A stretch of 58,982 bases of DNA from Acidisoma sp. L85 (lineage in GTDB: Bacteria > Pseudomonadota > Alphaproteobacteria > Acetobacterales > Acetobacteraceae). Below, in pieces: positions 6,746-19,172 of this stretch. Position numbers and translations under genes: made by a program. The stretch covers positions 43,322 through 102,303 of the forward strand of contig NZ_LMUQ01000022.1 of NCBI RefSeq assembly GCF_009765865.1. The letters are read 5' to 3'. A model generated the notes under the pieces. The model saw only the letters and a list, made by a program, of their open reading frames with translations. It searched no databases and was not told the origin of the DNA. How positions within the stretch are numbered: position 1 is the first letter of the stretch; every line of letters begins with the position of its first letter.

Positions 6746-7397
6746 ATGACCCCGCGCCGATATGAGCTGACGGACTTTGAGTGGTCGATCTTGAACCACT
6801 GCTTCCGAATAAGCCTCGTGGCGTACGACGCGCCGATGACCGCCGTGTCTTGAATGCCATCTATTGGCGGCTGCGCACGGGTTCACCGTGGGCAGATATC
6901 CCAGAGCGGTATGGTCCTCCCACGACCTGCTACAACCGCTTCGTCCGCTGGCGGAAGGTGGGTGTTTGGGACAAGGTCTTCGAGGCTGTCTCGCGAGCCT
7001 TTGACGGTGATCTTCAAATGATCGATTCTTCCTCGATCCGGGTCCATCAGCATGCGGCGAACGTCAAAAAGGGGGCCCGCCGGAAACCGACGAAGGTCAC
7101 GACACTCCATCCCGATGCATGGGGCGCTCGCGCGGCGGACTGACGACAAAGATCCACGCTCTCGTCGATGCCAACGGCAATGCCATTGCCCTCAAGCTGA
7201 CCGAAGGCCAAGCCCATGACGGCACGAGCGCGCGTGACATGCTGGACACCATCGGCGCGGGTCAAATCCTTCTGGCTGATCGGGCCTACGACAGTGACGC
7301 TCTTCGGGGACTTTGACGGACCGTGGCGCCTGGGCCAACGTCAAGCCTATGCAACGAAGGTTCAACATTCCCGCCTTCAGTCCGTTCCCTTATCACT
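6746..7397 (+). pseudogene. IS5-family transposase, frameshifted and truncated
   Basis: Starts at ATG 6746 after GGGAG with MTPRRYELTDFEWSIL, the usual IS5-family N-terminus. Near 6793 a G is missing and the reading continues in the next frame (PLLPNKPRGVRRADDRRVLNAIYWRLRTG, then IDSSSIRVHQHAANVKKGARR). It shifts again near 7120 (GRSRGGLTTKIHALVDANG, LLADRAYDSDALR) and again near 7315 (DRGAWANVKP, FNIPAFSPFPYHCRN). It stops abruptly at about 7397, where IS110-type sequence begins; the region normally encoding LVERFFNKIK is absent. Three frameshifts and the truncation make it a remnant. Confidence 0.85.
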
Positions 7398-8450: not shown

Positions 8451-9160
8451 CGGGGGGCTCCAGCGAATCGGGGCAGCCGCTATCGAATCATAATCGTCTC
8501 TCAAGACTCAAGATGATCTTGGACCGAAACTTAGTGAATTCATCGCATTAGCCGTTCAGGCCGCATCCGCCATACGATAACAACCATCAGGTTCGACCAA
8601 CTCAACGACTATATCGATCTAGTGAGGACGGGTGCGGTAATCAGTATGAAGTTTTGATAAACCTGGTCCGCCGGGCTGGAGCATCCAACCTCAAATGCCC
8701 GGCGAGCACAGAGGGCCTTCGGACATTGTTCCGACCGGATTTTCGTCGTGCTCGCAAGTATTGTAACTCGCGGCCGGTCGAGGGCATGCCCGCCTATGAA
8801 ATTCTTACCTCTTTTACCTGCCGTCCATCCGCGCACTAATGGGGCGCAGCGGCGGAGTGCTCGATGAACGCGGCGACCTGGCTCGGATGGGATAAGATAC
8901 CGGCATGGCTGCTGACTATCTCGACCGTATGCGCGTGTGCGCGCGTAGCCATTTCGCGCTGCTGGGGCGTGGGCGCCCGCATCGGGTGCGTACGCGGCAA
9001 TGTAGCTTGCGGGCGTTTTTTCCAGCGCTGAGGGACGTGTTCCGGTGTCGGCGATTGCCGTGTGACGGCTCTCGTCGCCGTCGAGCGCGGGCTTCAGGCC
9101 GAGCAAGCCCCCAAATGAACGTCGGCCAGGGGACGTGCAAATAGGCGAGCAAGTCTCGAA
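8451..9160. other. Degenerate region, no gene recognised
   Basis: About 700 bases of high-GC sequence with overlapping frames on both strands. A minus-strand frame stays open through much of it, but its composition (Arg/Pro/Ala-rich, no motif) looks like chance read-through of a broken gene. I see nothing functional. Confidence 0.4.
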
Positions 9161-9211
9161 GGTGCTGACCTTCCCGCCCAGCACGAGGTGTCTAGTTTTT
9201 GCTCGCGGACG
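9161..9211. repeat. 51-bp repeat, copy 1
   Basis: This 51-bp segment recurs in inverted orientation at 38007-38057 with 48 of 51 positions identical; both include CACGAGGTGTCTAGTTTTTG. Both copies sit at break points inside decayed genes, so they may mark the end of a mobile element. The element itself is not recognisable. Confidence 0.8.
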
Positions 9212-9521
9212 CGTCTCTGTGACGCTATGCCCGTTTGGGCCGGTTTTCGCCACTGTGCCGGTTGAGGTCGCACCGTTGAACCCGGTGATGGCTCGGCTAT
9301 CGGTTATCGTCCAATTGGTTACCCTTCGGTTGAACGAGCTCGTCGCTGTCGCGCCATTCGGGCGGGTCGCGGTGATCGTTCGTCCGAAGTTGCCACCGCC
9401 ATTGTCCGAGGGCGTGAACGTCCGGCTGTAGGTCCATGCCCGCAGAGCCGGTATAAAAGCAGCCACGCGCGTTGGCAGGCGTGATCGATGCGACAAAGGC
9501 TACGAGGATCGACAAGCTCAC
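9205..9521 (-). pseudogene. Broken secreted protein with TRPNG-type repeats
   Basis: The leading part (from 9521) reads SILVAFVASITPANARGC, like the end of a signal peptide. After a frame change near 9435 the sequence reads WTYSRTFTPSDNGGG, then ITATRPNGATATSSF, AITGFNGATSTGTV and KTGPNGHSVTETRP. These look like loose repeats of the kind T-x-T-R-P-N-G-x-T found in low-complexity secreted proteins of Rhizobiales. It runs into the 51-bp repeat at 9161-9211 and loses identity there. Upstream the leading frame continues open to about 9650 and could belong to a different truncated gene. The function is unknown and the present sequence is unlikely to give a normal protein. Confidence 0.45.
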
Positions 9522-10146: not shown

Positions 10147-10884
10147 TCAGTACTGGGAGACGCCGCCATCGACATCAAGCTCGATGCCGGTGATGTAGGC
10201 GCTGTCGTCGGAGGCTAGGAACACGGCCGCCTTGCCCAGGTCCTCGGGCGTGCCAAGGCGCGAGAGCGGGATCATATTGATGATTCCGGCATGTGCCTCT
10301 TGTGGGATCAACGACTGAAGACCCGGGGTCAGCGTATGGCCAGGGCTCAGCACGTTGATGCGGATACCCAGTTCCTTTGTGTCATGCAGCCAGCCGCGAG
10401 CCAGGTTACGGACAGCTGCCTTGGTCGACGCGTAGACCGACATGTTGGGAATGCCGATCGAGCCGGCGATCGAGCCGGTGAAAATCACCGACGCACCCTT
10501 CGGCAGCAGCGGCAGCGCCTTCTGGAATGCGAAGAGCAGGCCCTTGACGTTGACGGCGTAGGTCTTGTCGAAGTGCTCTTCGGTGATCTCGCCGACCTTC
10601 ATGAATTCATAGAACCCGGCGTTCAGCATCAGCACGTCGATACGGCCGGCCTTCTCCCTGACCGTCGCGTAAACGCGGTCGAGATCGGCGAGCTTCCCTG
10701 CGTCGCCCTGGATGCCAACGCTGCCATTGCCGATCTCGGCCACGGCCTTATCAAGTTCTGACTGCCGGCGGCCGGTGAGGAACACTCGCGCACCTTCATT
10801 GGCGAACGCCTTGGCAATACCGAGGCCAATGCCGGCGCTGGCCCCGGTCACGACGGCGACCTTGCCCTCTAGTTTTCTGCTCAT
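10147..10884 (-). CDS. SDR-family NAD(P)-dependent oxidoreductase
   Basis: Classical short-chain dehydrogenase of 245 residues. Cofactor motif TGASAGIG (13-20), NAG (88-90), catalytic Ser138, Tyr151 and Lys155 in YASTK, and a C-terminus IELDVDGGVSQY usual for the glucose-1-dehydrogenase-like group. The substrate cannot be read from sequence. The gene begins 143 bases downstream (minus direction) of the palindrome at 11027-11041, which resembles the operator in front of the nearby LysR gene, so control by that regulator is likely. The ABM gene follows. Confidence 0.92.
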   Translation of the reverse strand: MSRKLEGKVAVVTGASAGIGLGIAKAFANEGARVFLTGRRQSELDKAVAEIGNGSVGIQGDAGKLADLDRVYATVREKAGRIDVLMLNAGFYEFMKVGEITEEHFDKTYAVNVKGLLFAFQKALPLLPKGASVIFTGSIAGSIGIPNMSVYASTKAAVRNLARGWLHDTKELGIRINVLSPGHTLTPGLQSLIPQEAHAGIINMIPLSRLGTPEDLGKAAVFLASDDSAYITGIELDVDGGVSQY

Positions 10885-11328: not shown

Positions 11329-11967
11329 TCAGGCCGGCGGCACGAGGGCAGTGACTTTGGCGATACCAGCCTGGACGCCCGGCCGTGCCGCGATCATTTC
11401 ATACCAGCGCGCAATATTCGGCGAATTGTCGAAGTCGATGCCAGCGAACTCCCGACGCCACAACCAGCCGAAATGCACGATGTCTGCGATGCTGAATGCG
11501 TCACCGGCGACGAATGTGCGCTTAGCCAACAACCCATCGAGCACAGCGAAGACGCGCTCGGACTCGGCTTGGAAACGGTTGATCGCTAACGGGACCTGCT
11601 CAGAAGCCTGACGCTTGAAGAACCCGACTTGGCCGAGCGCCGGGCCAATGCCAGTCAGATGGAAGAACATCTGTTCGAAGACCCGTGCCCGGTAGACTCC
11701 GTCCTTTGGCAGCAGCTTGCCGCTCTTCTCCGCGAGGTAGATCAGAATGGCGCCCGACTCGCTGAGGGTCAGTGGCTGGCCGTCAGGTCCTTCGGTATCA
11801 ACCAATACCGGGACCTTGCCGTTCGGATTAACGGCGAGGTAGTCGGGCTGCTTTTGTTCGCCCTTGCGCACGTTGATCGGCTTGAGCTCGTATGGAAGCC
11901 CCATTTCCTCAAGCGCGATCGGCACGCGCACGCTGTTCGGAGTCGAAAAGGCATAAACTTGGTACAT
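11329..11967 (-). CDS. Glutathione S-transferase
   Basis: 212-residue GST. N-terminal thioredoxin-like domain with YAFSTPNSVRVPIALEE (the Ser/Thr-Pro-Asn of YfcG/nu-like GSTs), cis-Pro segment NGKVPVLVD and the glutathione contact LSESGAILIYLAE; C-terminal helical domain with the N-capping box AGDAFSIADIVHFGW. The start is ATG 11967 (MYQVYAF), preceded by GGAAG; an upstream extension would overlap the previous gene. It begins 28 bases after the peroxiredoxin-like gene, so the two form an operon. Such GSTs often have disulfide-bond reductase activity, fitting a redox-stress role. Confidence 0.92.
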   Translation of the reverse strand: MYQVYAFSTPNSVRVPIALEEMGLPYELKPINVRKGEQKQPDYLAVNPNGKVPVLVDTEGPDGQPLTLSESGAILIYLAEKSGKLLPKDGVYRARVFEQMFFHLTGIGPALGQVGFFKRQASEQVPLAINRFQAESERVFAVLDGLLAKRTFVAGDAFSIADIVHFGWLWRREFAGIDFDNSPNIARWYEMIAARPGVQAGIAKVTALVPPA

Positions 11968-11995
11968 CGGTGCTTCCGTCTGTTCGGGGTGGGAC

Positions 11996-12697
11996 TCAGG
12001 AACGTCGCCTGGAGGGCGGCGGGTTGGCAGCTGCGGAAACTGCAGTGGCAGCAACGCGCGTGGACTGCAGGCGGCGCAACGCGATCAGGATCTCGGCCGG
12101 CTCGATCCGCTTGGTGAAATCACTATCGAGGTACGAGAAGACAATCCGCCCGGACGAATCGGCTACGTAGGTTGCGGGGATCGGAAGCGGCGTGCGACAG
12201 CAGGCGCTGTCGGGACGGCCGAGTGCCCTGTAGTCATTGTGGAGCTCGTCGGCCGGCATGAAGGCAATGCCGAAGCTCGTGGCCACCTTGGCGCCGACAT
12301 CGGCCAACAGTGGAAACGGCGTGGGCACTATTTGGCACAGAAGTCGAACTTTACTGACTTGGGGGGCGATCGCGATGAGGGAGGCTCCGAGGACGGTGAC
12401 TTCGCCAGTTACGCGGGTCAGGGCTTCGAGTTCGAGAGCGCAGAATTGGCACCAGCCACCTCGATAGAAGCAGATAGCGACGGGTCCGCCTTGCAATAGA
12501 GAGCGGAGCCGAACCAGGGCGCCTTGCCCGTCCCGCAGCCGAAAATCCGGCACTGTGTCGCCTGCCCTGAGTGCTCGCCGCAGCATACCCGAAGCGCGCA
12601 GGCGCGCCGCTTCCGCCTGCAAGCGGTCGAAGGTGCCCGGGGGAAGGTCGCTCTCGGCTTGGCTGCGCAGCGCTGCCAGTCGCGACTTCAAAGACAT
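11996..12697 (-). CDS. Peroxiredoxin-like (AhpC/TSA) family protein
   Basis: 233-residue member of the peroxiredoxin-like family. Thioredoxin fold with AICFYRGGWCQFCALELEAL, whose C-x-x-C replaces the single peroxidatic Cys of standard AhpC, and the late segments LLADVGAKVATSFGIAF and PATYVADSSGRIVF. An N-terminal helical region (about 60 residues) is usual for this group. I start at ATG 12697 (MSLKSRLAAL); an open frame continues upstream through the operator region but has no domain. Divergent from the LysR gene across about 110 bases that contain the palindrome at 12791-12805, and upstream of the GST gene in one operon. Confidence 0.9.
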   Translation of the reverse strand: MSLKSRLAALRSQAESDLPPGTFDRLQAEAARLRASGMLRRALRAGDTVPDFRLRDGQGALVRLRSLLQGGPVAICFYRGGWCQFCALELEALTRVTGEVTVLGASLIAIAPQVSKVRLLCQIVPTPFPLLADVGAKVATSFGIAFMPADELHNDYRALGRPDSACCRTPLPIPATYVADSSGRIVFSYLDSDFTKRIEPAEILIALRRLQSTRVAATAVSAAANPPPSRRRS

Positions 12698-12790
12698 CGG
12701 GGGAGCCTCGGTTGGATGTTCGAAGAGCGTCTCAACCGTATCTGCCCATGTGCACTTGACGAGAGGAGGCTGCATAAGGAGATATCCTTC

Positions 12791-12805
12791 ATTCCGACGG
12801 GGAAT
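12791..12805. promoter_or_regulatory. Putative LysR operator C (ATTCC-N5-GGAAT)
   Basis: ATTCCGACGGGGAAT, a perfect 5+5 palindrome with T-N11-A form, 94 bases upstream of the peroxiredoxin-like gene and ending 4 bases before the LysR ATG at 12810, so it overlaps the LysR ribosome site. That placement fits autorepression plus control of the divergent operon. Confidence 0.6.
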
Positions 12806-12809
12806 GACG

Positions 12810-13745
12810 ATGAATCGACTGGCCGCCATGGACGCCTTTGTGCGCGTCGTCGATACCGGCTCTTTCACCGGTGCGGCGCGTCAGCTCCGCGTCGGCCAAC
12901 CGGCGATTTCCAAGATCATCGCCCAGCTCGAGGACCGGGTTGGTGTGAAGCTTTTGCTGCGTTCGACCCAAGGGCTAACACCGACGGAAGCTGGCGAAAC
13001 TTTCTACGAACACGCCAAGCGGTCGGTCGAAGAGGCCGACGAAGCGGAAGTCAAGGCCCGCGGGGCGGCCGCAGCGCTCTCTGGCCGGCTGCGAATCGGC
13101 GGCGCTGTCACCTTCTCTCGGCTCCACGTCGTGCCACGGCTTCGCAAATTCATGGCGATGCATCCGGCTCTCGACCTCGAGGTGTTTCTCGACGATCGCG
13201 ACGTCGATCTGGTCGAGGCCGGCATCGATATTGCGCTCAGGATGGGTGACCAACAGGATTCGTCACTAACGGCACGCAAGATCGGCAGCAGCCCGCGTGT
13301 CGTCGTTGGTGCGCCCAGCTATCTCGAGGAAGCCGGAATTCCGGTAACGCCGGCGGACCTCGTGGCGCATCAGTCGGTAATTTACGACCGGCGCGGCGGA
13401 GGCATCGTCTGGACGTTCACCCAAGGCACGGCCGAAAGCGCCGTCACGCTCAAGGGTCGGGTTCGCCTCACGGCAGCTGAAGGCGTGCGGGAGGCAGTGA
13501 TCTCGGGGATAGGCCTTGCGGTCGCTTCGGAGTGGATGTTCTCGCCCGAGATTGCGTCTGGGCGCGTGGCACGCGTCCTAGCGGACTGGTCGTTGCCGAA
13601 GATTGATCTCTGGGCCGTATTCCCGTCGGGGCGCAACGTCAGCACGAAGGCGCGGGCGTTTGCGAGCTTTATCGAACAGGAGCTCGGATCGAAATTCGCC
13701 GATGACGAGAAGGAGGCCGGCGACGAAGTGGTCGCTACCGGCTGA
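12810..13745 (+). CDS. LysR-family transcriptional regulator
   Basis: 311-residue LTTR. N-terminal winged HTH: MDAFVRVVDTGSFTGAARQL, then VGQPAISKIIAQLEDRVGVK and LLLRSTQGLTPTEAG; the rest is a LysR substrate-binding domain (RLRIGGAVTFSRLHVVPRL, DIALRMGDQQDSS, VREAVISGIGLAVASEW). The start is ATG 12810, with GGGGA 6 bases upstream; ATG 12804 in the same frame has no spaced ribosome site. Divergent from the peroxiredoxin-GST operon. Three palindromes of one sequence type around this cluster make a local regulon likely. The inducer is unknown, perhaps a quinone or electrophile. Confidence 0.93.
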   Translation: MNRLAAMDAFVRVVDTGSFTGAARQLRVGQPAISKIIAQLEDRVGVKLLLRSTQGLTPTEAGETFYEHAKRSVEEADEAEVKARGAAAALSGRLRIGGAVTFSRLHVVPRLRKFMAMHPALDLEVFLDDRDVDLVEAGIDIALRMGDQQDSSLTARKIGSSPRVVVGAPSYLEEAGIPVTPADLVAHQSVIYDRRGGGIVWTFTQGTAESAVTLKGRVRLTAAEGVREAVISGIGLAVASEWMFSPEIASGRVARVLADWSLPKIDLWAVFPSGRNVSTKARAFASFIEQELGSKFADDEKEAGDEVVATG

Positions 13746-14291
13746 TTAAGCGGCCGACCCCTTACTGAAAGCCCAAAGCTTGCTAGTGCGACGAGTGCCA
13801 GCCCGACCGAAGGTTCACCGCTACTGTTCTTTGTACCCATACTCGATGTTGTTGCCAATCGCGCCGTATGTTTGAACGGCAAGAATTTGCCGGATATCGT
13901 GAGTTTGACGCGATCACCTATTGGGTTCGGCGGTCGCTCCATGTCGAAGTCGAAGTCGATCGCGGACATTATGCCGTCGCCGAATTCTTACTCGAGTAGC
14001 GCTTCCAGGCCAGTCTGTCGATCATCACTTACTCGTAGAGGCGATAGCTAGCGGATCGCTCCGCGGCATTTTTACGCCCTCACCGGGCATCGGCACCTCA
14101 TTGAGCCTGGTTCGCTCGCCCTCGGACAAGCTAAGCAACTTTGTAGCCGCAACCGCCTGTGGCTCGGTCGACTCATTTGACCCAGTATGGCGCCGACGAT
14201 CAGCACTTCGGAGTGACCGCCGATCTAATTGCAGATATATTTCCAACTCCAGCCGTTCTCGCGTTTGATGTCGAGCTGAGTCGTCGGGACG

Positions 14292-14833: not shown

Positions 14834-15460
14834 TCAGGGGGAAAGCGGCTGCGCGCAGTGCTTCGCGTAAGCCGGTCGGGTCAACAATCGATCGTACCAA
14901 GCGCGCAACATCGGCAACTCCGGCCTATCAATTGGCAGCATAAACCAGCGGTGCAAGGACGGCCCGAACGCCACATCGGCGATCGACGGTTGAGCGCCGC
15001 CCAGGAACTCACAGCCAGCGAGCCCCGCCTCCACAATTGTCCATACCCGTCCTGTCTCGAGGGCTGCCGCCGCAATTGCTGCCGGATCGCGCTTCTCCGA
15101 TGGCGTCCGCACGAGCCCGATGAAGACCCGGTTCAACGGCCCCGTCAGCAGCGTTTGCTGGAGGTCTAGCCACGCATCCGTATGAGCGCGCAGCCGCGAT
15201 GTAGCCGGATACCAGTTGCTGTCAGATGCGTATTCGCTGCCCAAATAGCGCAGGATCGCGTTGCTCTCAAACAACGAGAACGCATCTTCCTCCAACGTCG
15301 GCACCAAACCAGCCGGATTCATCGCCAGATATTCTGGCGTGTGCGTTCCGCCAAATGGTCCGCCCACATCAATCCGCTCGAAGTCCAAGCCGAGCTCGTC
15401 CAGCAACCACAAAACCTTCATTACGTTAGAAGACGAAGAACGGCCCCAGATCCGGATCAT
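14834..15460 (-). CDS. Glutathione S-transferase family protein
   Basis: 208-residue GST of a different subgroup from the one at 11.3 kb. N-terminal IRIWGRSSSSNVMKVLWLLD with Ser-rich active-site loop, PAGLVPTLEEDAFSLFESNA with the glutathione-binding ES pair, and C-terminal ADVAFGPSLHRWFMLPID. The start at ATG 15460 is where the domain begins. It stands alone, with block B downstream and a perfect hairpin at 15572-15597 about 110 bases upstream. The substrate is unknown. Confidence 0.9.
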   Translation of the reverse strand: MIRIWGRSSSSNVMKVLWLLDELGLDFERIDVGGPFGGTHTPEYLAMNPAGLVPTLEEDAFSLFESNAILRYLGSEYASDSNWYPATSRLRAHTDAWLDLQQTLLTGPLNRVFIGLVRTPSEKRDPAAIAAAALETGRVWTIVEAGLAGCEFLGGAQPSIADVAFGPSLHRWFMLPIDRPELPMLRAWYDRLLTRPAYAKHCAQPLSP

Positions 15461-15571
15461 ACCGCGGCACCCTTACTTTTCGTATGCAACCAGCCGTAGC
15501 CTCGGCCACCCAACAGCAACACTTGTGGATCCGCCGTGGCTGGGTCAGATGGTTTGCATACCACGTCCCTA

Positions 15572-15597
15572 CTGAGCTCCTCTTGGCAGGAGCTCAG
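15572..15597. promoter_or_regulatory. Perfect 10-bp hairpin
   Basis: CTGAGCTCCT-N6-AGGAGCTCAG, a perfect stem upstream of the GST gene and downstream of the DUF1127 gene. No T-run follows on either strand, so it is not a standard terminator; it could be an operator or attenuating hairpin. Confidence 0.45.
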
Positions 15598-15730
15598 CGT
15601 CAAGATCGCACCGCGCTAACATACCTCCTCCGGACGCTCCCTGCGTTCTAAGCCACCGCAGGCGCAGACCGCGGCACATTTGTCTGACGCGGAATGGCCC
15701 TCCTCACACCGTTGAGCAGATATGGGCGAC

Positions 15731-15979
15731 TCAGGCCACCCGGTCACCGGGTACGCCCGACGCGAGACCGCCATCGTTCTTTCTTCGTGGACGATCGGTG
15801 CCTGAAGCAACAGCGTGAATGTCCACACGGCTTAACCTAAGTTCACGAAGCTCGTGATCGGTATACATCGAGAGCTCATTTGCAATTTGCCGATAATCTT
15901 GACGATTTGCACGCCGGTCTTCCCGGCCTCGACGATATTGTCGAGCTAACCCTGAAAAAATAGTGAGAAGAGTGTTCAT
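15731..15979 (-). CDS. DUF1127 (YjiS-like) small protein
   Basis: 82-residue protein with the short DUF1127 segment IANELSMYTDHELRELRLSR and VDIHAVASG, common in alphaproteobacteria. Small Arg-rich DUF1127 proteins have been linked in other species to RNA binding and carbon or phosphate control; nothing here specifies a role. The start is taken at ATG 15979 (MNTLLTIFSGLARQYRRG) because the family begins with such a helix; a longer frame to 16021 exists. The C-terminal 20 residues after the domain look unstructured. Confidence 0.75.
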   Translation of the reverse strand: MNTLLTIFSGLARQYRRGREDRRANRQDYRQIANELSMYTDHELRELRLSRVDIHAVASGTDRPRRKNDGGLASGVPGDRVA

Positions 15980-16061
15980 CGCATCAAATACGCCCACCGA
16001 ACAGCTCCCGTCGTGCTGCATCGCAACATTAGGCTCAATAGAAGATCAAGGCAGCTTCGGG

Positions 16062-16832
16062 CTAGGTACTTGCGCTGCTCCGCGTCCCGACCGCTTCAAG
16101 CTCAAGGCCTAAGCAGACGAGGACGTGTCGGCCGCGCGGAGCGAATTTGATCATCCCGGCTCGCGGTCGTCCAACGGCACCCAGGTCATGGTCTAGAGCC
16201 TCGCCCAACCTGTTGCCACAAACGTCTTCGAGACGCTCAGAGACGACGAGGCGGTGTTCCCCGGCACTCCAACGGTGGCCTGGGATAAGCTGCGCCGCTG
16301 TTCCATCCGATGTGAGTAAAACACGAGTATGAACGACCTCTCCGTAAGGGGTCCGGACTCCGATCTCATTCTCGCAGAGGGCCGCGTCCATAACCCTGTC
16401 GAAGTGCACAACAGCGGGATCTAGGCTCCCCACCGTCGGTGAGACAATACGCCAGCAGGTCTCCTTGAGCGCTTCTAGAACTGGATCGCTTACGCGGAAG
16501 GTATGGCGAGCCGTCTGCCCGAGCGCCGTGGCGACAAGGCTGTATGACCGCCCGACGACAAGGGCCGGCTCGTGAGCCGGGTCCGCCCCAAGACCGCGCT
16601 TGATCCTTCCTGGCTCCATCAGCACCGTTAGGCGACGCCCATCAGGCGACCAGAGCTCCTGCGACAGGACGAGGAAAGGGTCTCGCACCACCTGCTCCTC
16701 CTCGTTCAGCAGCCAGAGTCGCTCACGATCGAAGTGCGCCTCTCCTGGCCTCGGGAAATGTATATAGAAACGCAGGGTGTTGGCAGGGAGCACCTTGGCT
16801 TGGGGAGAGATGCGGATGGGTATCTCAGTCAT
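16062..16832 (-). CDS. Conserved hypothetical protein, probable beta-sandwich
   Basis: 256-residue protein I recognise only as a conserved hypothetical. It has the flavour of Ig-like domain proteins: LPANTLRFYIHFPRPGEAHF, LWLLNEEEQVV, LTVLMEPGRIKRGLG and a second similar block LIPGHRWSAGEHRLVVSERL with EDVCGNRLGEALDHDL. The start is ATG 16832. No signal peptide is visible in this frame. It follows the large hypothetical gene in the same direction after about 140 bases and may be in the same operon. Function unknown. Confidence 0.7.
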   Translation of the reverse strand: MTEIPIRISPQAKVLPANTLRFYIHFPRPGEAHFDRERLWLLNEEEQVVRDPFLVLSQELWSPDGRRLTVLMEPGRIKRGLGADPAHEPALVVGRSYSLVATALGQTARHTFRVSDPVLEALKETCWRIVSPTVGSLDPAVVHFDRVMDAALCENEIGVRTPYGEVVHTRVLLTSDGTAAQLIPGHRWSAGEHRLVVSERLEDVCGNRLGEALDHDLGAVGRPRAGMIKFAPRGRHVLVCLGLELEAVGTRSSAST

Positions 16833-16970
16833 TCAATTCGCGGCTCTCGCAAAATGACGCTCGACCGTGTACGGACGGCCGAACGCTCGCCTGGCGTGTC
16901 GGTGAACCGACATCGTCGTCAAGCGCTTCCCCGCCGCGGTTTCCACTGCTTCCCTCTCGCTTTCCTTCGG

Positions 16971-18158
16971 TCACGCCGCCTGCTTCGGCGGGAACTGGGC
17001 GCCCGGGAAATCAAATTCTACCCAGATCTTGTCTAGCCGTCCGGGAAGCGGGCTGGTCATCAGGGTCTCAAGTGCCAGATCGCCGGTATCTGCATAGCGG
17101 GTCAGCGAGACGAAGAAGCGGTCGCTGAACAGGTCGGCCCGCAACGACGATCCGACGAACAGCACCTGCTTGCCGACCGGCCCGGCCGGCATGCTGGGGT
17201 GTTGGTCCAGCATCTTGTCCTGGGTCGGTCGGTTCTCGGGCGTGTAGCCTTCAGCGGAGCGGATTCCGGAGAGCGGAACTATCATGGGGCCGCGACTGAG
17301 ATTGGTGATGAACAGCTTGTCCTCGTCCCCATCACGGAAGGCGACCATGCTGATGGGCTGGCCGTTGCCCATGTCGCCGATCGTCTTGCCCCTCACCTTG
17401 GCGCCGTGCTTCAGCTCGGAGACTGGAATGGTGACGAGCGGACTGCAAGCGTAGGCGGCGACGAGCGTGTCCTCGCCATCGATGGTGGCGAACTGCATGG
17501 TCCGGATCGGCGCACGCGTTTCGTAGAGGCCGTGAGCGAGATGGTAGATTTCCAGTTGGGTCTCGCTGGCGGCCCCGGTGAACGGATTGGGGATACGTCG
17601 CAGCGTGGAGGAGAACTCCTGGTTCGAGACGCCGGCGACGTACACGTCGCCGTTGTGAAACTTCAGATCCACGATCGTCATGGACCGGAGCGGCGTACGC
17701 GCCTTCTCGTCGAAGACCGCCGCCGGCGGATATGGGAAAGAGCCGGCCCGCGACCTAAAGGTCTTGCCCTCGTCGGGAACGTCAGTCAGGCGGTGTACTG
17801 TCATCTTCGACGATGAGAGATCGAAGGGCCGGACCTCTCCGGCGAGCGAGACGCTCACGACCGCAGGCTCCAGGCGATCGCCGTTGCGCACTCCGGCGGA
17901 CAGGTATGGCTCGCGCGTGACGGGGTGGACGGCCATTCCATTTATCACCAAGCTCTTCACCGCCACGCCCAGCACGCCGGCGATCTTCTCGTCGATCGAC
18001 TCGAAGAGGAAGGGATCAAGTGAGACTGGAGCCTGGCCCCGTTCCGTCTCGAAGGCGAAGACGGCGCCGAGCTTGTTGTCGCCGACGAAGAGGACCCCGT
18101 CAGGGCTGAAGGCCAGAGCCCCCGCCGCTTGCGGGGTGATTTGTTCAAGCGTTTTCAT
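16971..18158 (-). CDS. Conserved hypothetical protein, probable beta-propeller
   Basis: 395-residue protein with repeated short strands typical of a propeller: GALAFSPDGVLFVGDNKLGA, LVINGMAVHPVTREPYLSAG, TIVDLKFHNGDVYVAGVSN, MQFATIDGEDTLVAAYACSP, SMVAFRDGDEDKLFITNLSR. It has no signal peptide, so it is likely cytoplasmic unless exported otherwise. The start is ATG 18158 (MKTLEQITPQ), with GGAGGT four bases upstream; the in-frame ATG at 18170 lies before that ribosome site. It probably forms a two-gene unit with 16062-16832. No enzyme motif was found. Confidence 0.75.
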   Translation of the reverse strand: MKTLEQITPQAAGALAFSPDGVLFVGDNKLGAVFAFETERGQAPVSLDPFLFESIDEKIAGVLGVAVKSLVINGMAVHPVTREPYLSAGVRNGDRLEPAVVSVSLAGEVRPFDLSSSKMTVHRLTDVPDEGKTFRSRAGSFPYPPAAVFDEKARTPLRSMTIVDLKFHNGDVYVAGVSNQEFSSTLRRIPNPFTGAASETQLEIYHLAHGLYETRAPIRTMQFATIDGEDTLVAAYACSPLVTIPVSELKHGAKVRGKTIGDMGNGQPISMVAFRDGDEDKLFITNLSRGPMIVPLSGIRSAEGYTPENRPTQDKMLDQHPSMPAGPVGKQVLFVGSSLRADLFSDRFFVSLTRYADTGDLALETLMTSPLPGRLDKIWVEFDFPGAQFPPKQAA

Positions 18159-18354
18159 GATGACCTCCATCGTCGCTAACAGCGGCCGTTTAATTAGATA
18201 GATGAGAGATTGCGCACGACGGGGTCAGGCCACGACGCTTGTCGCTCCGGAAGAAAATAAGCCGGATAGTGAAGATCCGACTTGCGTCAATACTTCGACC
18301 CCCGCAGCGTTCCGCTTCCGCCGCGGCCGCCTCGTCGCCAGGTCGCAACGATCT

Positions 18355-18594
18355 TTAGAGCTTGGTGTGGCTGCCATCGCAAAAGACGCCACTTTTGCTG
18401 CTCTTGCAGCCACAAAGGTACGCCGTCTTGGTTTCTATGGCCTCGAATTTTATCGGAGAGAGGCCGCTGCCGGCGTGGCTTCCGTTACAGAAGGGCTGCG
18501 TCTTGCTCAATCCACAGGAACACCAGTAGTAGCTCGCGCCTGCTTCAACTTGAACGGGATATGGACCTTTTTGCGCGATCGTTGGTACTGACAT
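18355..18594 (-). CDS. Double-CDGSH iron-sulfur (NEET-type) protein
   Basis: 79-residue protein with two CDGSH motifs, each a C-x-C-x8-C-x3-H ligand set for a 2Fe-2S cluster: Cys25, Cys27, Cys36, His40 (CSCGLSKTQPFCNGSH) and Cys61, Cys63, Cys72, His76 (CGCKSSKSGVFCDGSH). Such tandem bacterial CDGSH proteins bind labile redox-active clusters and are thought to work in iron-sulfur or redox homeostasis. AAAGGAG precedes the ATG at 18594. Divergent from a MarR regulator, with CCTTGATGAT repeats between them, so MarR control is likely. Confidence 0.9.
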   Translation of the reverse strand: MSVPTIAQKGPYPVQVEAGASYYWCSCGLSKTQPFCNGSHAGSGLSPIKFEAIETKTAYLCGCKSSKSGVFCDGSHTKL

Positions 18595-18633
18595 TTAATC
18601 TCCTTTGCTTGCGCTTCACGTTCTGGTAAACTA

Positions 18634-18687
18634 CCTTGACTAATGAAAGTAAAGCACCTTGATGATATGGTCAAGAGCCTTGATGAT
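18634..18687. promoter_or_regulatory. Repeated CCTTGAT boxes between CDGSH and MarR genes
   Basis: CCTTGACTAAT at 18634 and two exact CCTTGATGAT at 18657-18666 and 18678-18687, 21 bases apart (two helical turns). Between the latter two lies TCAAG, which pairs with CTTGA to form a palindrome CTTGATGATATGGTCAAG (18658-18675). A likely MarR operator array covering both promoters. Confidence 0.6.
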
Positions 18688-18716
18688 TTTTTGGTTCGGC
18701 GACGACGTGGGCGCTC

Positions 18717-19172
18717 GTGAGTAGCTCAAAGGAAGAAAAGGGGGTCAACTTTGCACCGGCCTTGGCTGCCGCCAGCCGTGCCTTAACCGCCACCATGATG
18801 GCCAAGGTTGCTAGTTGTGGGTTCAAAGACATGACCCCCGCCTTCGCGAGCCTCATGCCCCTACTTGATGCGACCGGCGCCCGACCCACCACCTTGGCGC
18901 AGCGAGCCGGAATCACCAAACAGGCGATTAGTCAGCTGGTTCGCGAGCTGGAAGCACGCGGCTATGTCGAGCAGGTGCCCGACGCAACCGACACACGCGC
19001 CAAGATCGTGCGCCTGACGAAGCGTGGGGTCGACATACGCGCGGCCTGTGCGGAGGTGAAAAATGAACTACAGGCCATTGCCGTCGCAAAGCTTGGCAAA
19101 TCACGAGTATCACGATTGCAGCGGGATCTCATAGAGCTTGCCGCCGCTCTTGAGGACATGCACACGCGCTGA
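18717..19172 (+). CDS. MarR-family transcriptional regulator
   Basis: 151-residue winged-helix regulator: LMPLLDATGARPTTLAQRAG, ITKQAISQLVRELEARGYVE and QVPDATDTRAKIVRLTKRGV form the HTH and wing with the family's conserved D-x-R. MarR proteins usually bind palindromes as dimers and are released by phenolics or by Cys oxidation; ligand unknown here. The start is GTG 18717, without a strong ribosome site; an internal ATG pair near codon 27 is an alternative but would trim the first helix. Its divergent CDGSH neighbour and the repeats between suggest autoregulation and control of iron-sulfur or redox stress. Confidence 0.88.
   Translation: MSSSKEEKGVNFAPALAAASRALTATMMAKVASCGFKDMTPAFASLMPLLDATGARPTTLAQRAGITKQAISQLVRELEARGYVEQVPDATDTRAKIVRLTKRGVDIRAACAEVKNELQAIAVAKLGKSRVSRLQRDLIELAAALEDMHTR

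What the first reader, a model, noticed from the sequence alone, without database searches (positions are those of the whole stretch)
16062..18158. Two-gene unit of uncharacterised proteins (propeller plus Ig-like)
Seen: two adjacent co-directional genes without recognisable enzymes, one with repeated propeller-like strands and one with Ig-like pattern, neither with a visible signal peptide. A cytoplasmic propeller with a beta-sandwich partner is an unusual pairing.
Basis: partly seen in the sequence, partly recalled or inferred. Interest (0 to 1): 0.4.

Follow-up and report, generated by a model that had tools for sequence, protein, structure and literature searches.

The report
Exported protein pair moved into cytoplasm
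Two neighbouring genes of unknown function form a strongly conserved pair that looks exported in many bacteria; the copy in this window belongs to a branch that has lost both export signals, has jumped between bacterial phyla, and sits with stress-handling genes, so it may mark an undescribed two-part redox protein.

Summary
In detail: two co-directional minus-strand genes, 16971-18170 (399 aa) then 16062-16832 (256 aa), without Pfam or NCBIfam matches and without visible signal peptides. The second is a tandem Ig-like protein. The first is probably a beta-propeller, but its model is poor, so that fold is supported, not shown. They are a real unit: 32 of 35 propeller genes examined have the Ig gene directly downstream. 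Relatives show three export states: signals on both proteins; a Tat-type signal on the propeller only; no signal on either. The window is in the third state, one clade in both trees, under purifying selection and spread between phyla. Linked genes include an SDR, a peroxiredoxin, GSTs, LysR/TetR regulators and MFS transporters. The propeller carries an invariant HxxH...E...YxC cluster (33 of 33) that holds its only cysteine. Best reading: an obligate two-protein complex with a metal- or thiol-based redox site, recruited into mobile detoxification cassettes. Complex, location, metal and activity are inferred. The HxxH plus Glu set resembles the copper site of SELENBP1 (methanethiol oxidase), but no sequence match to a known family was found.

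The parts
16971..18170 (-). probable beta-propeller protein, 399 aa, no visible signal peptide
16062..16832 (-). tandem Ig-like (Big_5-type) partner, 256 aa, no visible signal peptide
17445..17543 (-). codons of the invariant cluster H210, H213, E217, Y240, C242 of the propeller
   Evidence: invariant in 33 of 33 aligned propellers
10147..10884 (-). short-chain dehydrogenase/reductase, shared with the M. ciceri cassette (75%)
11329..12054 (-). glutathione S-transferase, shared with the M. ciceri cassette (78%)
11996..12868 (-). AhpC/TSA-family peroxiredoxin-like protein (start uncertain)
   Evidence: PF00578 E 8.6e-18; relatives in L017, L003, L004, L005
12813..13745 (+). LysR-type regulator, shared with the M. 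ciceri cassette (59%)
14834..15460 (-). second glutathione S-transferase, next to the pair
15731..16021 (-). 96-aa ORF directly downstream of the Ig gene, no family match; whether it is a gene is open

Best explanation
The two genes encode an obligate two-protein complex: a probable beta-propeller with an invariant HxxH/E/YxC site (the working subunit) and a tandem Ig-like protein (its scaffold or lid). In many relatives both proteins carry export signals. In one alphaproteobacterial group only the propeller has a signal, of Tat type, which suggests that the Ig partner is carried out already bound. In the window's clade both signals are gone and the pair works in the cytoplasm. There it travels with regulator, peroxiredoxin, SDR, GST or efflux genes and most likely performs a metal- or thiol-dependent redox or electrophile-detoxification step. 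Shown here: pairing, conservation, absence of both signals in one clade, spread across phyla, purifying selection, gene context. Inferred: physical complex, cytoplasmic location, metal site, redox chemistry.
For: Pairing: 32 of 35 propeller genes have the Ig gene directly downstream on the same strand; 11 of 11 plasmid records with one have the other. Signals: absent in both partners in the window's clade, judged by hydrophobicity, one clade in the propeller tree (8 rows, 100/99) and in the Ig tree (9 rows, 100/100). Tat-type signal on four propellers, with no signal on the Ig partner in the three that can be read; Tat export of heterodimers with the signal on one partner is known (PMC10924467, PMC4273604, start of abstracts). 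Selection and transfer. Site: H210, H213, E217, Y240, C242 invariant in 33 of 33, C242 the only cysteine. Context: SDR relative in 5 of 9 and peroxiredoxin in 5 of 9 clade loci, one or the other in 8 of 9; pirin, FMN reductase, MauG-like and HxlR genes beside other members. HxxH with Asp and Glu is the proposed copper site of the propeller SELENBP1 (PMC10362175, passages).
Against: No interaction, metal or activity was measured. The propeller model is too poor to place the conserved residues in one pocket. No neighbour is universal, and other members lie beside unrelated metabolic genes. SDR genes are common in this genome (148 domain matches in 6.38 Mb), so an SDR near the pair is weak evidence by itself; three of the five peroxiredoxin loci are related Acidobacteriaceae. 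One weak Ig-only match exists (G291, E 5e-4), and in L066 the two genes lie 4 kb apart on opposite strands.
Confidence: 0.5

Rival explanations
1. A non-catalytic binding pair: the propeller binds a protein or small ligand as sensor, chaperone or store, the Ig protein is a structural spacer, and the linkage to stress genes is incidental.
For: Propellers are often binding platforms (general knowledge); no match to an enzyme family; neighbours are not uniform.
Against: A cluster of His, His, Glu, Tyr and the single Cys invariant in 33 of 33 sequences, down to 27% identity to the window protein, is more than a binding face usually needs (judgement).
Confidence: 0.3
2. Two independent proteins of one regulon that act in the same compartment without forming a complex.
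For: Co-regulation alone can keep genes adjacent; no interaction data.
Against: Both signals are absent in the same clade, and a signal-less Ig partner beside a Tat-type propeller in three readable loci is hard to explain without binding.
Confidence: 0.12
3. The window pair is exported after all, by a signal that was missed or by another route.
For: Signals were judged only by hydrophobicity and start-codon choice; the propeller frame is open 18 aa upstream of its ATG (417 against 399 aa).
Against: No clade member scores above 1.1 at the N-terminus even with the longest start (L008 lacks the start of its propeller), while the second pairs in L002 and L017 have clear signals on both proteins.
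Confidence: 0.08

Closest known systems
SELENBP1 / methanethiol oxidase (SBP56 family), copper-dependent propeller thiol oxidase (PMC10362175, passages seen)
   Same: Propeller (probable here) with a conserved HxxH motif and acidic residues; there His137, His140, Asp189 and Glu252 are proposed to bind copper
   Different: No sequence match found; here a conserved Cys and Tyr, a two-gene system with an Ig-like partner, and export signals in many relatives; metal and activity untested
Bacterial Ig-like Big_5 domains and tandem Ig modules such as LdtMt2 domains A and B
   Same: Ig-like tandem fold
   Different: LdtMt2 domains are joined to a transpeptidase domain (recalled); here the Ig protein stands alone and is tied to a propeller gene
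Tat hitchhiker complexes (PMC10924467, PMC4273604; start of abstracts seen)
   Same: In four relatives the propeller has a twin-arginine signal; the Ig partner has none in the three that can be read
   Different: Inferred from sequence only, in relatives, not in the window pair
Cargo of ICESym-like conjugative plasmids, here pMc1192 of Mesorhizobium ciceri CC1192 (PMC8627217 and PMC8090884, passages seen)
   Same: Same pair with SDR, GST, LysR and peroxiredoxin, between traG and the relaxase gene
   Different: No conjugation genes of that kind were found beside the window copy, and the M. ciceri relaxase has no match in the window's genome

Membership tests
Beta-propeller proteins | Repeated four-stranded blades closed into a ring | tested here: inconclusive
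   Poor model, Foldseek hits mostly propellers with low TM-scores, weak internal repeats
Bacterial Ig-like (Big_5) proteins | Match to the Big_5 profile | tested here: inconclusive
   Not in the window protein, but in 8 of 16 family members, best E 4.5e-8
Bacterial Ig-like (Big_5) proteins | Ig-like beta-sandwich fold | tested here: met
   Model of moderate confidence with tandem Ig modules as best Foldseek hits, TM-scores low
SBP56 / methanethiol oxidase | Sequence match to the family | tested here: not met
   33 family members against Pfam-A give no such match up to E 0.1; no solved structure matched by sequence
SBP56 / methanethiol oxidase | HxxH motif with conserved acidic residues | tested here: met
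   H210, H213, E217 in 33 of 33, D168 in 31 of 33; equivalence of position was not testable
SBP56 / methanethiol oxidase | Copper-dependent thiol oxidase activity | not testable with these tools
   Needs purified protein
Propeller lactonases and paraoxonases | Sequence match to a lactonase family | tested here: not met
   No such Pfam match; only low TM-score structural hits
Tat hitchhiker complexes | Twin-arginine signal on one partner only | tested here: not met
   Not met in the window pair, which has no signal; met in 3 of 3 readable relatives
Tat hitchhiker complexes | Joint export of the bound partners | not testable with these tools
   Needs an export assay

The most novel reading that the evidence does not exclude
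A new two-subunit propeller/Ig metalloenzyme that works like copper thiol oxidases, assembles in the cytoplasm even in lineages that export it, and was turned into a cytoplasmic enzyme by one mobile lineage that dropped the export signals of both subunits; its peroxide and aldehyde products are handled by the co-travelling peroxiredoxin, SDR and GST.
Probability: 0.12. Interest if true: 0.75.

Novelty: new variant of a known kind. Interest (0 to 1): 0.5.

Why it matters
A protein pair found in several phyla has no Pfam or NCBIfam model that matches the window proteins and no paper turned up in the searches made (open-licence library only). Absence of both signals in one clade, and a Tat-type propeller beside a signal-less partner in another group, form a natural experiment that predicts a stable complex made in the cytoplasm; the invariant site gives a short list of residues to test. 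If the redox reading holds, it adds a new enzyme type to bacterial stress cassettes, in at least one case carried on a conjugative plasmid.

Tried and rejected
Phage or defence origin: no match in phage records or, by the short-peptide scan that finds close relatives only, in viral contigs. PADLOC and PHROGs were not searched. Known enzyme family: none by Pfam or NCBIfam for the window proteins; 33 propellers of the family against Pfam gave one family, one member at E 0.018, RskA_C, taken as chance. Solved structures by sequence: no significant propeller match; for the Ig profile a weak E 0.0087 to 2yn3. A fixed third gene: rejected, no neighbour is universal. The CDGSH gene as part of the unit: among the loci held, found only in the window's own locus. 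A conjugative element like that of M. ciceri in the window's genome: its relaxase has no match there (an empty answer without a positive control). Promoter scan of 15400-18800: 1 site against 0.9 expected. Literature: five protein and locus identifiers gave no paper; keyword searches gave none or, by title and abstract start, none on this pair.

Full report
What is there. Neither protein matches Pfam or NCBIfam up to E 5. The window's genome has one copy.

Folds. Ig protein: AlphaFold2 mean pLDDT 71.7 from nine sequences; best Foldseek hits are tandem Ig modules and LdtMt2, E down to 6e-8 with TM-scores of roughly 0.25; Pfam Big_5 matches 8 of 16 family members, best E 4.5e-8. Propeller: mean pLDDT 42.9 from eight mostly close sequences. 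Of the 50 Foldseek rows listed, most are propellers as far as I recognise them (sema domains, glucose dehydrogenase, 6-phosphogluconolactonase, paraoxonase, DDB1), with TM-scores of 0.19-0.36. Profile searches of solved structures gave only non-significant hits, 3 of 3 and 4 of 5 of them WD-repeat or WD-like proteins. Internal repeats are weak, and the shuffle is a lenient control. I treat the propeller as probable.

Pairing. Sources: one genome-contig scan for close relatives (7 loci), plasmid records (11 records), and samples of whole genomes with a propeller match: 4 of 398 of the phylum, 3 of 385 of the class, 3 of 299 of the family, 13 of 199 of the Acidobacteriota, one of them a short fragment, G1049, 4 of 101 of the Mucilaginibacter family; these counts include the genomes from which the search started. 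I analysed 35 propeller genes in 33 loci; the fragment and 7 further Vibrio plasmids are not among them, and L019 and L020 are near copies. In 32 of 35 the Ig domain follows directly on the same strand. The exceptions: L063, where the contig ends; the first pair of L002, where a second pair and an MFS gene lie between; L066, where the Ig gene is 4 kb away on the other strand. The 11 plasmid records with the propeller are the 11 with the Ig protein. In the phylum sample 4 genomes have both and a fifth has a weak Ig-only match (G291, E 5e-4).

Export states. Of 26 propellers outside the window's clade, 24 have an N-terminal stretch of 1.48 or more on the 11-residue scale; the exceptions are L021, whose start looks odd, and L070, scored over 22 residues only. 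For the Ig proteins the script's window often ran into the domains, so I judged the printed N-termini by eye: 18 of 25 outside the clade show a signal-like hydrophobic start, several with a cysteine in a lipobox-like place (recalled motif); L061, L062 and L065 are unclear, L032 is cut by an N run, and L023, L031 and L033 have none. Four propellers, all from the window's class, carry a twin-arginine signal (L023, L031, L032, L033). In the three whose partner can be read the Ig protein has no signal, and in L023 and L031 stop codons just upstream exclude one. In the nine loci of the window's clade (window, first pair of L002, L003-L008, first pair of L017) the scores run from -0.08 to 1.03 (8 propellers; L008 lacks its propeller start) and from -0.59 to 1.09 (9 Ig proteins). 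These loci form one clade in both trees (100/99 and 100/100). Next to them stand the signal-bearing second pairs of L002 and L017, with weak support in the propeller tree (80/55) and good support in the Ig tree (98/93). The trees are rooted at the midpoint, so 'loss' is the simplest reading, not a proof.

Transfer and selection. Clade members come from the window, M. ciceri pMc1192, two Granulicella strains, a Terracidiphilus and a Mucilaginibacter strain, and three MAGs labelled Methylacidiphilales, Bacteroidetes and Puia (binning is a caveat). Synonymous distances between phyla are unsaturated (window to Granulicella 0.53, to the Methylacidiphilales MAG 0.41), and the Mucilaginibacter propeller gene has 51.9% GC in a locus of 41.5%. 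No housekeeping gene was run as a control. Within the clade dN/dS is 0.05-0.17 for the propeller and 0.14-0.29 for the Ig protein, in the pairs computed among six members. In pMc1192 the cassette lies between traG and the VirD2-type relaxase gene; [quoted passage not shown]

Context. Window and M. ciceri share SDR (75%), GST (78%), LysR (59%), Ig (80%) and propeller (93%), and a peroxiredoxin of the same group (37%). Across the nine clade loci an SDR 48-75% identical to the window's is present in five (window, L002, L006, L007, L017), the peroxiredoxin in five (window, L003, L004, L005, L017), one or the other in eight; the ninth, L008, is a 4.7-kb fragment. In this genome SDR domains are frequent (148 matches in 6.38 Mb) and AhpC-TSA domains rare (14), so the peroxiredoxin is the more telling neighbour; three of its five loci are related Acidobacteriaceae and the background is one genome. 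Among 44 selected neighbour ORFs of the clade: SDR 9, TetR 7, MFS 5, AhpC-TSA 4, GST 3, LysR 2 (the window's peroxiredoxin was not in that set). Among 55 selected ORFs beside 20 other loci: AraC-type 4, LysR 4, pirin 3, PD40 propeller 3, CCP/MauG 2, FMN reductase 2, LUD 2, HxlR 1, and many single families. The HxlR regulator of L018 resembles the redox regulator RrpB but scores below its cut-off. The context leans to redox and electrophile stress; it is not uniform.

Site. Across 33 aligned propellers F186, S188, P196, F197, H210, H213, E217, P221, A238, Y240, C242, P244 and G268 are invariant; D168 is kept in 31, R219 in only 20; C242 is the only cysteine of the window protein. In the predicted strand order these lie at strand ends and loops that follow each other, where propeller sites usually are (inference from a poor model). 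In SELENBP1, a copper-dependent propeller thiol oxidase that turns methanethiol into H2O2, H2S and formaldehyde, His137, His140 (HxxH), Asp189 and Glu252 are the proposed copper ligands (PMC10362175, passages). The likeness is a lead, not membership.

Judgement. Firm: a conserved, uncharacterised pair, with a horizontally spread clade that lacks both export signals. Likely: an obligate complex. Open: the chemistry. The combined reading stands at 0.5, resting mainly on pairing and evolution; the copper thiol-oxidase-like reading at 0.12.

Noticed in passing
window 18355-18594 (-): A 79-aa CDGSH iron-sulfur protein (PF09360, E 3.7e-16) lies just upstream of the propeller gene and opposite a MarR-type regulator (18717-19172); it is missing from the other loci held.
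   Followed up: partly
window 6781-7316 (+): Pieces of an IS4/IS5-type transposase in two frames, about 3 kb from the cassette's SDR gene: a broken mobile element.
   Followed up: no
window 13382-13969 (-): An ORF whose first 33 residues match the end of the cyanate lyase domain (PF02560, E 1.9e-9): probably a gene fragment between the LysR gene and the second GST.
   Followed up: no
window 8609-9496 (-): An ORF rich in Asn, Thr and Gly with repeat-like stretches and no Pfam match.
   Followed up: no
L002:4960-10522 and L017:8001-16999: Signal-less and signal-bearing pairs side by side in one DNA molecule, in a Verrucomicrobiota MAG and in M. ciceri pMc1192: perhaps two compartments served by one cassette.
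   Followed up: partly
L019 and L020, about 8.6-12.0 kb: On Vibrio plasmids the pair follows pirin and FMN-reductase genes beside a LysR gene; a pirin gene also lies upstream in L062, L064 and L069, with a MauG-like gene downstream.
   Followed up: partly
Ig and propeller trees: The stem branch of the signal-less clade is 1.42 for the Ig protein against 0.50 for the propeller: the partner changed faster around the loss of the signals.
   Followed up: no
L021:7191-8327 (+): This propeller has an odd, non-conserved N-terminus and a long tree branch (1.27), as if its start were broken or replaced.
   Followed up: no
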